Source: Gemmatimonadetes bacterium T265
Lineage (GTDB): Bacteria; Gemmatimonadota; Gemmatimonadetes; Gemmatimonadales; Gemmatimonadaceae
Length of the DNA stretch: 64,000 nt
Assembly (NCBI GenBank): GCA_019973575.1
Contig: BPUI01000001.1
Coordinates: 1,748,342-1,812,341, forward strand
Reading direction: 5' to 3'
In this document: positions 32,164-49,842 of the stretch, one piece after another
Position numbering within the stretch: position 1 is the stretch's first letter
Layout of the letters: every line of letters starts with the position of its first letter
Translations under genes and position numbers: made by a program
The notes under the pieces: model-generated
Database searches by the model: none
What the model was told of the DNA's origin: nothing
Seen by the model: the letters and a program-made list of their open reading frames with translations, nothing else

Positions 32164-32175
32164 CACGGGGGCGTC

Positions 32176-32515
32176 GCGGGGCGTTCGGGGCGGGTGGAGC
32201 GACGCGTGGGGGCGTGGGTGGGCGGGCGCGCCAGATGAGCGCTTGCGGGGAGGTCGTTGGGGCGGTTCCGAACACAGCGGGGCAGATCACCCGGGCGGAG
32301 CCACGGGACGGGTACCGCGGCTGACTGTACGACAGGATCAGGGCCGGTCCCATGCCGTGCCCGCCCGGCCGCCGCTGCCGCCCCGCGTCATGGGCGCCGT
32401 GGGTGTCGCCCCGCTCTTCCTGCCCCGCCCCAACGACCTGCCCGCGTGCGCCCACCTGGCGCGCCCGCCCACCCACGCCCTCCCCGTCGCTCTACCCGCC
32501 CCGAACGACCCGCCG
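32176..32515. repeat. Large imperfect inverted repeat, arms about 105 bp
   Basis: The left arm (about 32176-32283) and right arm (about 32408-32515) are reverse complements over roughly 105 bases. They are near 89% identical in the outer 90 bases and weaker further in. The best-conserved core is GCGTGGGTGGGCGGGCGCGCCA (22 bases: 32212-32233 left, reverse complement 32458-32479 right). Another shared block is AGGTCGTTGGGGCGG (32251-32265 left, 32425-32439 right). The loop of about 124 bases holds no open gene. It fills the whole gap between two rightward genes. It could be a MITE-like element, a large transcribed hairpin, or a decayed mobile element; no target duplication was identified. Confidence 0.8.
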
Positions 32516-32552
32516 CGTAAGACCATCCGACGACCGCCATAACTTCTCGACC

Positions 32553-44547: not shown

Positions 44548-44938
44548 CCACGCCGACACGCCCGCAGAAACGTGGGAGATCTGGAAGGAGTTCACGTTCG
44601 AGGCGGCGCACCGGCTGCCGCACGTGCCCGAGGGGCACAAGTGCCGGCGGCTGCACGGCCACTCCTTCCGGGTCGAGGTGCACGTGCGTGGGCCGCTCGC
44701 CGGGCCGGCCGGGTGGGTGATGGACTTCGGCGACCTCAAGGCCGCGTGGGCGCCTGTCCACGCGGAGCTCGACCACTACTACCTCAACGACGTGCCCGGA
44801 CTGGAGAACCCGACGAGCGAGGTGCTCGCGCGCTGGCTGTGGCGGCGGCTCCGGCCGGCGCTGCCGGGGCTCGCGCGCGTCGTCGTGCGCGAGACGTGTA
44901 CGTCGGGGTGCTCCTACGCCGGGGCGCCGCCGCCGTGA
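44507..44938 (+). CDS. queD: 6-carboxy-5,6,7,8-tetrahydropterin synthase QueD
   Basis: This protein has 143 residues from ATG 44507; ATGs at 44522 and 44537 are equally possible because the first 15 residues are a tandem repeat outside the conserved domain. Zinc ligands are His in EAAHRLPHV and the two in [10 protein letters not shown]. The catalytic Cys is in [11 protein letters not shown], and the conserved Glu in [11 protein letters not shown]. QueD converts dihydroneopterin triphosphate to carboxytetrahydropterin in queuosine synthesis; the motif SGCSY is the QueD rather than PTPS form. No queC or queE is adjacent. The stop overlaps the next gene (GTGA). Confidence 0.93.
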
Positions 44939-46134
44939 GCGACGTCGCCACGGGCGCGCTCGCCGCCGCGCAGGCGACCGTGCTCGTGCGCGTGCTCTGG
45001 CGCCTGCTCCCCGGCCTCGCGCGCACGCCGGCGGTGGCTCCGCTCGTCGACCCCGCGGACGCGCGGTGGGCACACGTCGCCGCGGCGGGCCACGCGCCCG
45101 CGCGCGTGACGGTGCTCGTCGCGACGCTCAACGAGGCCGCCCGGCTCGGCCCCTGCCTCGACGGCCTCGCGCGGCAGGGCGCGCCGCTCGCCGAAGTGCT
45201 CGTCGTCGACTCGCGTTCGACCGACGGGACTCGCGAGATCGTCGCGGCGGCGGCCGCGCACGACCCGCGCGTGCGGCTGCTCACCGACCCGGCGCTCCCG
45301 CCGGGGTGGGTGGGCAAGGTGTGGGCGCTCGAACACGGCCTCCGGCACGCGACGGGCGACTGGGTGCTCGGCGTCGACGCCGACACCGCGCCCGCGCCGG
45401 GGATGGTCGCCGCGGTCGTCGCGGCCGCGGCGGCGTACGAACTCGACGTCGTGAGCTTCGCGCCGCGCTTCGCCGGGCAGTCGGCCGCGGAGCGCCTGCT
45501 GCAGCCGGCGATGCTCGCCACGCTCGTCTACCGGCTGGGCGCGCCGACGCCGCGCCCGCGCACGCCGGGCGACGTGCTCGCCAACGGCCAGTGCTTCCTC
45601 GCGCGGCGCGCGCTGCTCGTGCGCTACGGCGGCTACGCGCCGGCGCGCGCGAGCTGGGCCGACGACGTCGCGCTCGCCCGCCACCTCATGCGCCGCGGCG
45701 CGCGCGTCGGCTTCCTCGACGGCGCGCGGCTCTACGACGTACGCGCCTACGCCTCGGTCGGCGAGGCGTGGCAGGAGTGGGGGCGGAGCTTCGACCTCGC
45801 CGACGCGAGCGCGCCGGCGCGCCAGGCGCTCGACCTCGCGGTCGTCACGCTCGCGATGGGGGCGCCGCCGCTCGCCGCGGCCGGCGCGCTCGCCGCGGCC
45901 GCCGCGGGGTGGCGGCCGGGCGCGTTCGGCACGGCGCTCGTCGTCGTCAACCTCGCGCTGCTCGCCGTGCGGCTCGGCGTGCTCGCCGCGACGCGCGGGT
46001 CGTACGCGCGGCGCGGGGCGGCGTACTGGTGCAGCCCGCTCGCCGATCCCGCGGCGACGGCGCGGCTGTGGCTCAGCACGCTCCGGCGGCCGCGGGCGTG
46101 GCGGGGGAGGGCGTTCGCGCTGGGGGCGCGGTAG
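44935..46134 (+). CDS. Membrane-bound GT2 glycosyltransferase (HpnB/CrtQ-like)
   Basis: This 399-residue protein is read from the GTG overlapping queD. The GT2 core is [70 protein letters not shown] (DxD) and [35 protein letters not shown]. WVGKxWA is characteristic of hopanoid-associated HpnB and carotenoid CrtQ-type transferases. Four hydrophobic segments follow residue 290, placing it in the membrane. A terpenoid glycosylation role is suggested by the motif only; no hopanoid or carotenoid gene is nearby. It ends at a palindromic repeat array. Confidence 0.87.
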
Positions 46135-46145
46135 GGGGGAACTGC

Positions 46146-46326
46146 GTGTGGTGGGGCGGGGGAACGGCGCGGTTGATCGGGCGCGGTTGATGAGGCGCTG
46201 TTGATCGGGCGCTGTTGGACTGGCGCTGTTGATGAAGCGCCGGGCTCCGACCGGCCGGGTCGCCGCACCAACAGCGCCTCACCAACAGCGCCTCGTCAAC
46301 CGCGCCGTTCCCCCGCCCCACCACAC
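46146..46326. repeat. Palindromic pair of 14-bp repeat arrays between convergent genes
   Basis: A 31-bp perfect inverted repeat (46146-46176 versus 46296-46326, containing GTGTGGTGGGGCGGGGGAAC) encloses arrays of a 14-bp unit, consensus GGCGCTGTTGATGA. In the left array five direct copies run 46166-46235. In the right array three copies occur in opposite orientation (about 46268-46309). The intervening loop of about 30 bases is CG-rich. It fills the whole gap between two convergent genes, so it would form a very long hairpin in either transcript. It may act as a bidirectional terminator or be a repetitive element of the BIME/REP type; it does not resemble CRISPR since there are no spacers. 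Confidence 0.85.
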
Positions 46327-46335
46327 ACCGCCCTC

Positions 46336-49300
46336 TTACTGCCGTCCCTCGCGCCGCCCCCACGTCGGCGGCGGCGGCTCGCTCGTCCGGCGGTCGACCG
46401 GGTGTTCGGCCAGCAGCCGCAGCGCCTCCTGCACCGCCCGCTCGAGCTGCGGGTCGTGCCCGGCCGCGACGTCCCGCGGCCAGTTCTCGACCGCGATGTC
46501 CGGCGCGACCCCCTCGTTCTCCACCGCCCAATGCCCGTCGCGCGTGAAGAAGCCGCCGCGCGGCGCGATCATCGACCCGCCGTCGACGAAGAGCGGCGTG
46601 TCGGCCGTGTGTACGAGCCCGCCCCACGTGCGCTCGCCGACGAGGGGGCCGAGGCGGCGACGCTTGAACATGTACGGCATGAGGTCGCCGCCCGAGCCGG
46701 CCATCTCGTTGATGATCATCACCTTCGGCCCCCAGATGCCCGCCTCGGGGCTCGTGAACGGGACGCGCTGGTTGATGGCCGAGTTGAAGTAGCCGTCGAA
46801 GTCGCGCTGGAGGAGGTCGATGATGTAGTCGGCCGCGGAGCCGCCGCCGTTGTAGCGCTCGTCGATCACCGCCCCCCGGCGGTCTTGTTGGGCGAAATAG
46901 TAGCGGTTGAAGCTCTGGTAGCCCGGCTGCGCCGTGTTGGGCAGGTACACGTAGGCGAGCCGGCCGCCGGAGAGCGAGTCGACCGTGCGGCGGTTGCGCT
47001 CCACCCACGCGCGCGTGCGCAGCCCCGCCTCGCTCGCCACGGGGAGCACGGTGACGCGGCGCGCGCCCTCGAGCGTGGGGCGCGCGTTGACGAGCAGCAC
47101 CGTCTGCCGGTTGGCGGTGCCGTCGAGGAGGCGGTAGACGTTGTCCGTGCCCGCGAGCTCGGTGCCGTTGACGGCGAGGAGGTAGTCGCCCGGCCGGACG
47201 TCGATCCCTGGGCCGGCGAGGGGCGCGCGCAGCTCCGGGTTCCAGCTCTCCGCGTCGTAGATCCGGGTGACGCGGTAGCGCCCGTTCTCGACCGCGAGGT
47301 CGGCGCCTAACAGGCCGACGCCCGGCGCGCCGTTGCCCGTCTCGGGCAGGTCGCCGCCGCGCACGAACGAGTGCCCGATGGCGAGCTCCGACCCCATCCA
47401 GTCGAGCAGGTAGTTGAGGTCCGCCCGGTGCATCACCGAGGGGAGCAGCGCGCCGTACATGCGCCCCACGGCGGGCCAGTCCGCGCCGTGCATGTTCTTC
47501 ACGTACAGGTAGTCGCGCTGGTTGCGCCACCCCTCGTGGAAGATCTGCGCGAACTCGGCCTTCGGGTCCACCCACATGCGCAGCGAGACGGCCAGACGCC
47601 CCTTCGCCGCGTCCGACCCCGTGGTCGCGGGCGGCGCGCCCGTGGCGTCGACGACGAAGAGCGTGGGGGCGGCGCCCGGGGCCCCCGGCGCGCCGGCGGC
47701 GGCCGGCGTGCGGTAGAGTACCTTCTGCCCGTTGGCGCTGACGACGAACTGCGCGACGTTGGGCGCGAACGCCACCGCGCGCCGGTCGCGGAGCGTGTAG
47801 CGGTGGAGCGTGCCCCCCGGCGCCGGCGCGTCCGCGGTGCCGGTCGGGGTGACCGTCTCGAGAAAGAACACCGCGCCCGGCGCGCCGCTCCGGAGCCCCT
47901 CGTAGTCGCGCGCCGCCACGCCCGGCACGGGCAGGATGCGCTGGCGCAGGCCGTCGACGTCGATGCGGACGGCGCGGCTTCCGTTAGGCGCCGGCGTGCG
48001 CGCGCTGTCGCGCCCGCGGGTGGTGTCGGCGCGCATGCTGTCCACGCGCGCGCGCACCGCGGCCCGGCGCGCCGTCTCCTCCTCGCGCGGCGGCTCGCCC
48101 GGGCGCTGCGGCGCGGGCGGCGCGCCCGCGAGGCTCGCCTCCTCGTCGCTCTCCGGCAGGAGCGGCGAGGGCTCGCCCTTCTGCAGCACGGCCATGTAGA
48201 GCGCGCGTGTCACCGGCCGCTCGTAGCTCGACATGTCGAGCCACTGCGAGGCGAGCGCGTAGTTGGTCGACGCCAGGAACCACAGGTACTTGCCCGACGC
48301 GTCCCACGCCGGCGCGACGGCGTCGGCGAGGCCGTCCGTGAGCTGGTGCTTCTCCCCCGTCTCGACGTTCGCGACGACGACCGCGCGGTAGAGCGACGGC
48401 AGCCGCTTGGCGTAGGCGAGCCAGCGCCCGTCGGGGCTCCACACCGGCTCGAGCTCGCGCCGCGGCACGAGGTACGTGTCCTGGTCGACGACGGTCGCCT
48501 TCCCCGTGGCGACGTCGAGCGACCAGATGCGGAAGTCGGTGTCGGTGTAGGCGATGCGGCGCCCGTCGGGGCTCCACGCCGGCGCGTAGTAGTGCGTCGG
48601 GTTGGGGAGCGCGATCTCGCGCGCGGGGGTGACGCCGTCCTGCGGCGCGATGTACAGCCGGTACTCCCCCGACCGGTCCCCGAAGTACGCGACGAACCGG
48701 CCGTCGGGCGACCACACCGGGTCACGCTCGGCCGACCCGCTCGCGTGGGTGAGGTTCCGCGCGTCGCCCTTTTCGGCCGGGATGGTGAAGATCTCGCCGC
48801 GCGCCTCGACCGCCACCCGCCGCCCCGTGGGGGAGATGGCGAGCGCGGTCACGCGGCCGCTCACGTCCTTCCACTGCGGCATCATCCACGGGAAGTCGCC
48901 CGCGGCGGTGATCGGCACGACGTGCTCGCGCCCGCTCGCCGGGTCCAGCTCGTGGACCACGCCGGCCTGCTCGAACACGACCGCGTTAGGCGTGGCGTCG
49001 AGCGACTTGACGTCGAAGTCGCGGTAGTGGGTGACCTCGCGGAGCTGCTTGGTGCCGGTGGCGTAGGCCCACACGTTCTGCACGCCGTCGCGGTCGGAGA
49101 GGAAGTAGACCGCGTCGTTGCCGACCCAGACGGGGTCGAGCTCTTTGGAGTCGGTCCACGGCACGGTCTCGACGGCCATCGTCTGGAGGTCGAGGATCCA
49201 CACCGGGCGGTTCTGTCCGCCGCGGTAGTTGCGCCGCTCCTCGTCCCAACTGTTGGGCATGCGGTAGGCGAGCCGGCGTCCGTCGGGGGACAGCTTCCCC

Positions 49301-49842
49301 TGGTACGCGCGCGGCATCGGCATCGGCACCTCGGGCCCGCCGTCGAGCGCGACGGTCCAGAAGCGCGGCACGGGCGTCGGCGCGTCGGTCGCGCGCCCGG
49401 ACGCGAAGACGACGCGCCGCCCGTCGGGCGTCCACCCCTGGACGAGGTCGGCGCTGGGGTGCCAGGTGAGGCGGCGGGGCTCGCCGCCGAGTGCGGGGAC
49501 GACGTAGACGTCGGTGTTGCCGCCGACGTCGGCGCTGTAGGCGACCCAGCGGCCGTCGGGAGAGAGCTTGGGGTTGGAGGCCTCGCCGGGTGTGCTCGTG
49601 AGGCGGCGCGCGGCGCCGCCGGCGCGGTCGACGATCCAGACGTTGCCGCCGTAGGCGAAGGCGATGTGCTGCGCGCTGACGCTGGGGGTGCGGAGGAGGC
49701 GCGTCCCGGCGGCCGGCGCGGGCGGCGTCGCAACGGCGGACTGGGCGCGCGCGCGCGGGCCGGGGGGCGTGAGCGCGGCGAGGGTGGTCGCGAGGGCGGC
49801 GGCGACGCGGATCGCCGGGGGCGCGGACGGGCGGCTGGGCAT
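46336..49842 (-). CDS. Tricorn-like protease (S41 peptidase with WD40-like and PDZ domains)
   Basis: This 1168-residue protein starts at ATG 49842 and carries a signal peptide (IRVAAALATTLAALTPPGPRARAQ). Residues about 45-530 are two PD40-type propellers with repeated LSPDGRWVAYSAD, WTPDGRRVVFASG and WSPDGRWLAYAKR blocks. After a Pro/Ala-rich linker (about 560-620) comes the tricorn core (DFDGYFNSAINQRV and others), a PDZ domain (about 850-930: RPGDYLLAVNGTELAGTDNVYRLL) and the S41 catalytic region with nucleophile Ser in INEMAGSGGDLMPYMF. It should degrade peptides in the periplasm. It is monocistronic and convergent with the HpnB-like gene. Confidence 0.92.
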   Translation of the reverse strand: MPSRPSAPPAIRVAAALATTLAALTPPGPRARAQSAVATPPAPAAGTRLLRTPSVSAQHIAFAYGGNVWIVDRAGGAARRLTSTPGEASNPKLSPDGRWVAYSADVGGNTDVYVVPALGGEPRRLTWHPSADLVQGWTPDGRRVVFASGRATDAPTPVPRFWTVALDGGPEVPMPMPRAYQGKLSPDGRRLAYRMPNSWDEERRNYRGGQNRPVWILDLQTMAVETVPWTDSKELDPVWVGNDAVYFLSDRDGVQNVWAYATGTKQLREVTHYRDFDVKSLDATPNAVVFEQAGVVHELDPASGREHVVPITAAGDFPWMMPQWKDVSGRVTALAISPTGRRVAVEARGEIFTIPAEKGDARNLTHASGSAERDPVWSPDGRFVAYFGDRSGEYRLYIAPQDGVTPAREIALPNPTHYYAPAWSPDGRRIAYTDTDFRIWSLDVATGKATVVDQDTYLVPRRELEPVWSPDGRWLAYAKRLPSLYRAVVVANVETGEKHQLTDGLADAVAPAWDASGKYLWFLASTNYALASQWLDMSSYERPVTRALYMAVLQKGEPSPLLPESDEEASLAGAPPAPQRPGEPPREEETARRAAVRARVDSMRADTTRGRDSARTPAPNGSRAVRIDVDGLRQRILPVPGVAARDYEGLRSGAPGAVFFLETVTPTGTADAPAPGGTLHRYTLRDRRAVAFAPNVAQFVVSANGQKVLYRTPAAAGAPGAPGAAPTLFVVDATGAPPATTGSDAAKGRLAVSLRMWVDPKAEFAQIFHEGWRNQRDYLYVKNMHGADWPAVGRMYGALLPSVMHRADLNYLLDWMGSELAIGHSFVRGGDLPETGNGAPGVGLLGADLAVENGRYRVTRIYDAESWNPELRAPLAGPGIDVRPGDYLLAVNGTELAGTDNVYRLLDGTANRQTVLLVNARPTLEGARRVTVLPVASEAGLRTRAWVERNRRTVDSLSGGRLAYVYLPNTAQPGYQSFNRYYFAQQDRRGAVIDERYNGGGSAADYIIDLLQRDFDGYFNSAINQRVPFTSPEAGIWGPKVMIINEMAGSGGDLMPYMFKRRRLGPLVGERTWGGLVHTADTPLFVDGGSMIAPRGGFFTRDGHWAVENEGVAPDIAVENWPRDVAAGHDPQLERAVQEALRLLAEHPVDRRTSEPPPPTWGRREGRQ

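What the first reader, a model, noticed from the sequence alone, without database searches (positions are those of the whole stretch)
46146..46326. Palindromic pair of 14-bp repeat arrays in a convergent gap
A 31-bp perfect inverted repeat encloses five direct copies of a 14-mer (GGCGCTGTTGATGA consensus) on the left and three in opposite orientation on the right. The structure exactly fills the space between two convergent genes. It would form a stem of up to about 70 bp in either transcript. It is neither a CRISPR (no spacers) nor an ordinary terminator (no T-run). It may be a bidirectional transcription block, a nuclease or gyrase target like BIMEs, or a mobile hairpin.
Basis: seen in the sequence. 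Interest (0 to 1): 0.7.

Follow-up and report, generated by a model that had tools for sequence, protein, structure and literature searches.

The report
Dispersed palindromes kin to ribosomal insertions
The 180-bp palindrome between two genes is one of about 29 scattered copies of a bacterial hairpin element; two copies carry, between the same repeat arms, a small gene known from DNA insertions in ribosomal RNA, which suggests that the palindrome is a gene-less form of an undescribed, probably mobile, element found in several phyla.

Summary
In detail: 46146-46326 is a strong quasi-palindrome (31-bp perfect ends, five 14-mers left, three inverted right, 11 and 9 bp from two convergent stop codons). 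It is not unique. The genome holds about 29 loci of the same family (22 two-armed), nearly all intergenic and mostly just behind a stop codon. The family was found in no relative.

The main result is what lies between the arms in other copies. At two loci the 14-mer arms enclose (one degenerate) a gene for the 23S-rRNA intervening-sequence protein (IVP/S23, PF05635). A third IVP gene of this genome has ~165-bp near-perfect inverted arms of another palindrome family that also has a gene-less copy. In relatives 21/30 IVP genes have inverted arms, mostly of short tandem repeats (often 7, 14 or 15 nt), against 2/267 genes of similar size; in cyanobacterial and Azospirillum plasmids 13/16 against 1/1176 random segments.

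Best reading: a gene-less member of a class of palindromic elements related to ribosomal intervening sequences, sitting at gene 3' ends. Arms covary within a copy without G-U preference, pointing to DNA-level homogenisation. REP/RAYT, CRISPR and ordinary terminator are not met. Mobility and termination are inferred, not shown.

The parts
46146..46165 (.). left outer stem GTGTGGTGGGGCGGGGGAAC, base of the palindrome
   Evidence: part of the 31-bp perfect inverted repeat
46166..46235 (+). left arm: five 14-bp units, consensus GGCGCKGTTGRTNN
46236..46264 (.). loop; this is where two other loci of the family carry an IVP/S23 gene and a third locus a Mutator-family IS
46265..46306 (-). right arm: three 14-bp units in inverted orientation
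46307..46326 (.). right outer stem, perfect partner of 46146-46165
44896..46134 (+). flanking gene: glycosyltransferase family 2, stop codon 11 bp before the element
46336..49842 (-). flanking gene: tricorn-like S41 peptidase, 1168 aa, stop codon 9 bp after the element
   Evidence: orthologues in relatives have no such element behind them

Best explanation
The palindrome is a gene-less copy of a dispersed palindromic element related to the intervening sequences (IVS) of bacterial 23S rRNA. The full form is: tandem short-repeat arm, small IVP/S23 four-helix-bundle gene, the same arm inverted. Most copies lack the gene and are bare hairpins. They sit in the short gaps behind stop codons, often between convergent genes, where a long hairpin does least harm and may act as a two-way transcript barrier or RNase III site. 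Shown: the family and its copy number; the 3'-end position; the IVP gene between arms of this family at two loci and of a second family at a third; the same arrangement in relatives, cyanobacteria and one alphaproteobacterium; within-copy covariation of the arms without G-U preference. Inferred: that the elements move, that gene-less copies derive from gene-bearing ones (rather than the reverse), that they entered hairpins already present at gene ends as IVS entered rRNA helices, that template switching homogenises the arms, and any effect on transcription.
For: About 29 loci in the genome, no family member found in 147 other genomes of the family by pattern or in 16 relatives by BLAST beyond weak short matches. 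Arms enclose an intact PF05635 gene at C2:437661-437966 (63.5 bits) and a degenerate one with an in-frame stop at C1:852873-853175; the two share leader and gene sequence. A third IVP gene, C1:2787685-2787984, lies between ~165-bp near-perfect inverted arms that are 84% identical over 227 bp to the arm of a gene-less palindrome at C1:964500-964950. Relatives: 21 of 30 IVP genes have inverted flanks scoring 45 or more, against 2/267 genes of similar size and 5/1377 random segments. In G015 an IVP gene and gene-less hairpins share the same 15-mer units. Plasmids: 13/16 IVP genes against 1/1176 random segments at score 38 or more, arms mostly of 7- or 14-nt period. Own arms match better than arms of other copies (z 6.0), and so do flanks out to about 45 bp (z 3.6). 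Sense G.U 114 against A.C 112 in three sets.
Against: Only 2 of about 29 loci carry the gene, so the IVP gene could be a passenger that enters hairpins. No target-site duplication was seen and no catalytic mobility protein was identified; IVP has no known enzymatic motif. No congeneric genome is held, so gain or loss of this family could not be watched directly. One of four IVP genes in the genome and nine of 30 in relatives lack clear arms. The second abundant palindrome family of the window (B) has no gene-bearing copy found.
Confidence: 0.68

Rival explanations
1. The hairpins are ordinary REP/BIME-like or terminator-like repeats with an RNA or supercoiling role, and IVP genes are passengers that insert into hairpin loops, as IVS do in rRNA helices.
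For: Position behind stop codons and between convergent genes, which REPs also show (PMC3733652); a Mutator-family IS also sits in the loop of one copy, so loops do receive insertions; only 2 of about 29 loci have the IVP gene.
Against: No Y1/RAYT transposase in the genome; 180-350 bp instead of 20-40 bp; IVP association is far above chance and recurs with different arm sequences in several phyla.
Confidence: 0.2
2. The palindromes are bidirectional transcription terminators or 3' mRNA protectors that arose in place and are kept by selection on the RNA hairpin.
For: Very stable fold on both strands; 14 of 16 tandem-gene copies lie nearer the stop codon than the next start.
Against: No U-tract (2 of 27 sense flanks have 5 T in 8); no excess of G-U over A-C among sense-strand mismatches (114 to 112); a shared family sequence at about 29 loci needs copying, not origin in place.
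Confidence: 0.08
3. Neutral palindromes that grow and stay perfect by replication template switching, without mobility or function.
For: Long perfect runs in some copies (31, 36, 40 bp) beyond random placement of mismatches; flanking sequence outside the array also pairs with itself; precedent PMC8794818.
Against: Does not explain one sequence family at about 29 loci, nor the IVP gene between the arms.
Confidence: 0.04

Closest known systems
23S rRNA intervening sequences (IVS) with S23/IVP ORF (Leptospira, Coxiella; PMC4990558)
   Same: Inverted-repeat stem, S23/IVP gene in the loop, gene often degenerate, very stable fold, sporadic distribution, sits in hairpin contexts.
   Different: Here outside rRNA, at gene 3' ends, in about 29 copies, arms are arrays of short tandem repeats, and most copies have no gene. 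The Coxiella stem is 28 bp; here 60 to 165 bp.
REP/BIME/REPIN elements with RAYT (PMC3733652, PMC3116915)
   Same: Dispersed intergenic palindromes enriched at 3' ends and in convergent gaps, possibly non-autonomous mobile.
   Different: Ten times longer, arms are tandem arrays, no Y1/RAYT transposase in the genome.
Cyanobacterial STRR heptamer repeats (own knowledge)
   Same: Short tandem repeats with 7-nt unit; inverted arrays of this kind flank IVP genes on cyanobacterial plasmids.
   Different: STRRs are described as plain tandem repeats; the inverted arrangement around IVP genes was found here. No paper linking them was found in the three searches run.
Short repeats of Gemmatimonadota chromosomes, 90 and 150 bp in Gemmatirosa (PMC11237797)
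   Same: Same family of bacteria, many dispersed short repeats.
   Different: That paper counts them; in the passages read, no palindromic structure, 3'-end position or IVP link is described.
MITEs
   Same: Short gene-less inverted-repeat elements with rarer gene-bearing relatives.
   Different: No transposase and no target-site duplication found.

Membership tests
23S rRNA IVS | inverted-repeat stem enclosing an S23/IVP ORF | tested here: met
   Met by two loci of the family (one degenerate) and one copy of a second family; not by the window copy itself, which has no ORF in the loop.
23S rRNA IVS | located inside a 23S rRNA helix | tested here: not met
   Copies lie between protein genes; no Rfam match in the window. 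So it is not filed as an rRNA IVS.
23S rRNA IVS | excised from the transcript by RNase III | not testable with these tools
   needs RNA
REP/BIME/REPIN | associated RAYT (Y1_Tnp) transposase | tested here: not met
   PF01797: no match in the genome, 97.6% complete. CGTC-type REPs also lack a transposase (PMC3733652).
REP/BIME/REPIN | 20-40 bp palindrome | tested here: not met
   180 bp here, 140-300 bp in other copies
REP/BIME/REPIN | GTAG or CGTC terminal tag | not tested
   element ends are ambiguous because pairing runs into the flanks
MITE | terminal inverted repeats | tested here: met
MITE | target-site duplication | tested here: inconclusive
   ends cannot be fixed; flanks are inverted rather than directly repeated
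MITE | related element encoding a transposase | tested here: inconclusive
   gene-bearing relatives exist but encode IVP, not a known transposase
CRISPR array | repeats separated by unique spacers of similar length | tested here: not met
   14-bp units are contiguous
intrinsic terminator | GC-rich hairpin followed by U-tract | tested here: not met
   hairpin yes; T-run in 2 of 27 sense flanks

The most novel reading that the evidence does not exclude
A widespread, undescribed class of mobile palindromic elements in at least three phyla, in which the S23/IVP four-helix-bundle protein recognises tandem short-repeat arrays and copies or moves hairpins between hairpin loops (rRNA helices, hairpins at gene ends); gene-less copies are its non-autonomous progeny, and cyanobacterial heptamer repeats are arms of the same class.
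Probability: 0.4. Interest if true: 0.92.

Novelty: new variant of a known kind. Interest (0 to 1): 0.76.

Why it matters
The S23/IVP protein is common in environmental bacteria, has solved structures and no known function. Finding it between tandem-repeat palindromes, with gene-less copies in the same genome, gives it a candidate substrate (its arms) and a candidate role (spreading or keeping the element). It would also link three puzzles usually treated apart: insertions in 23S rRNA, heptamer repeats of cyanobacteria, and long hairpins at gene ends in Gemmatimonadota. Each link can be tested on public genomes.

Tried and rejected
RAYT/Y1 transposase: absent. Integron attC: GTTAGGC/GCCTAAC near the elements looked like attC cores but is a genome-wide over-represented 7-mer, not tied to family A. 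Rfam: nothing at gathering thresholds. Genome-wide collection scan with the unit pattern: nine single hits in unrelated genomes, read as chance; viral contigs none. RNA-level selection: no G-U preference. Intrinsic terminator with T-run: not met. Chi-like role of GCTGTTGG: rare outside the elements (19 in 400 kb), no support. Loop orientation along the chromosome: 12 plus to 3 minus among the 15 scorable copies, too few and the calls partly weak. Cross-species empty site: no congener of this genome is held; in G015 against G042 (same genus, 86% DNA identity) a hairpin of another family present upstream of the tricorn gene in one is absent in the other, which shows turnover of the wider class only. 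One search failed on the server and was replaced by a smaller one.

Full report
OBSERVATION. The structure at 46146-46326 is as described: a perfect 31-bp inverted repeat at the ends, five direct 14-mers on the left and three inverted on the right, in a 201-bp gap between a glycosyltransferase gene ending at 46134 and a tricorn-like protease gene ending (- strand) at 46336. It folds far better than shuffles on both strands and is the strongest hairpin of the window.

A FAMILY IN THIS GENOME. BLAST and pattern searches of the window's own genome (5.63 Mb, 6 contigs) gave about 29 loci: 22 with two arms, one split by an insertion sequence, one split by a gene, and five with one recognisable arm (my count from the listed places). 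Copies have two to nine 14-mers per arm, most often five. Loops vary in length and sequence; many share GGCGGCCCGAGCCGGCCGGGGGCAGCGCCG. By a simple codon-usage gene caller written for this purpose, nine loci are convergent, sixteen lie between genes of the same direction, three between divergent genes and one overlaps a called gene; in 14 of the 16 tandem cases the element lies closer to the upstream stop codon than to the next start (my count).

NOT IN RELATIVES BY SEQUENCE. The unit pattern was absent from 146 of 147 other genomes of the family; the exception (G136) has a different 14-mer array. A BLAST of 16 relatives gave only short weak matches, and a scan of 84,980 species genomes gave nine isolated chance-like hits. 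The held genus contains only this genome.

ANALOGOUS PALINDROMES. Scanning sampled DNA showed that relatives have long palindromes of other sequence: G015 has 37 of score 20 or more in 280 kb, several with 15-, 10- or 7-nt periodic arms, again mostly convergent or behind stop codons. In the window's own genome a second family, B (window 32170-32520, about 340 bp), has more than 20 further copies; 13 of the 19 examined are convergent, against 54 of 319 gene pairs in unselected DNA (p about 1e-6). For the family of this finding convergence is only mildly enriched (9 of 28, p 0.04).

HOW THE ARMS EVOLVE. Within a copy the two arms match each other better than arms of other copies (permutation z 6.0; family B arms z 3.8). 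Flanking sequence out to about 45 bp also pairs with itself (z 3.6), not beyond. Several copies have perfect runs of 28-40 bp, more than random placement of mismatches gives. If selection acted on the RNA hairpin, G-U pairs on the sense strand should exceed A-C mismatches; the counts are 53:49 in this family, 31:25 in B and 30:38 in G015. This favours a DNA-level process. Template switching during replication is known to create and repair hairpin stems (PMC8794818); that it acts here is inference.

THE GENE BETWEEN THE ARMS. The copy on contig 2 that seemed split by 450 bp proved to carry an ORF. A search for PF05635 (23S rRNA intervening-sequence protein, a four-helix bundle) gave four genes in the genome. 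One is this ORF, between two arms of the family. A second, with an in-frame stop, lies just before a one-armed copy and has one 14-mer on its other side; the two share leader and coding sequence. A third lies between about 165-bp near-perfect inverted arms whose sequence is 84% identical over 227 bp to the arm of a gene-less palindrome elsewhere in the genome. The fourth has no arms.

GENERALITY. In ten relatives PF05635 matched 42 places; of 30 fetched, 21 have inverted flanks of score 45 or more, against 2 of 267 genes of similar size and 5 of 1377 random segments. The arms are mostly short tandem arrays with periods of 7, 8, 14 or 15 nt. In G015 the IVP gene at C1:132992 is flanked by the 15-mer units that also form gene-less hairpins in that genome. 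In plasmids, 16 IVP genes from cyanobacteria and Azospirillum all have inverted flanks above 29 (control 14 of 1176) and 13 above 38 (control 1 of 1176), mostly heptamer arrays. The thresholds were chosen after seeing the scores, the loci are best matches rather than a random sample, and some plasmid copies are close relatives of one another, so the p-values overstate the evidence; the size of the difference does not depend on the exact threshold.

MECHANISM. I take the finding as a gene-less copy of an IVS-like palindromic element. IVS of 23S rRNA are described as selfish elements with the S23 gene in a stem-loop, inserted at a few rRNA helices and cut out by RNase III (PMC4990558). By analogy the present elements would enter hairpins at gene ends; the self-pairing flanks agree with that but are also expected from template switching. 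How they move is unknown: the genome has no Y1 transposase and IVP has no known catalytic motif. The closest solved relatives of the contig-2 IVP have five chains per entry (2gsc, 2rld), which fits a pentamer, and five 14-mers per arm is the commonest number here; I note the coincidence without weight.

WHAT REMAINS OPEN. Whether gene-less copies derive from gene-bearing ones or the gene is a passenger; whether the elements move; and whether they end transcripts. None was tested directly. The literature searches run here (full-text open-access only) showed no description of this arrangement, which is weak evidence for novelty.

Noticed in passing
whole genome; window has 20 on + and 21 on -: GTTAGGC is the most over-represented 7-mer of the genome: 518 in 803 kb, about 20 times expectation, while one-base neighbours CTTAGGC, GTTAGCC and GTTAGGG occur 2 to 6 times; many occurrences are in coding sequence. 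Enriched also in sampled relatives G016, G020, G021, G053, G011 but absent from G015 and G022 samples. Looks like a DNA-uptake-type or HIP1-type signature.
   Followed up: partly
window 32170-32520: Second palindrome family B, about 340 bp, more than 20 further copies at 75-87% identity, 13 of 19 examined in convergent gaps within a few tens of bp of both stop codons; no gene-bearing copy found.
   Followed up: partly
L065, C1:964500-964950 and L257, C1:2787685: Third palindrome family C: a gene-less copy with a stem of about 120 paired bases and an IVP-bearing copy with arms of about 165 bp.
   Followed up: partly
L075, C1:1684540-1686120: A Mutator-family (PF00872) insertion sequence sits in the loop of one copy of the finding's family, with a likely short target duplication CTCCCGGCCGG.
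   Followed up: partly
L150, L154-L156, L160, L162 and others: Another abundant palindrome of the genome, TGTCATCCTGAGCGCAGCGAAGGATC with its inverse about 110 bp away, present also as TCCCGAGCGCAGCGAGGGA in G015.
   Followed up: no
L292, L295, L297: On cyanobacterial plasmids IVP genes with repeat arms sit within CRISPR-Cas gene clusters (beside cas6 and cas4, or cas10 and cmr3).
   Followed up: no
L143:2656-2959 (C1:2002656): A palindrome with arms of about 118 bp in a convergent gap, sequence unlike families A and B.
   Followed up: no
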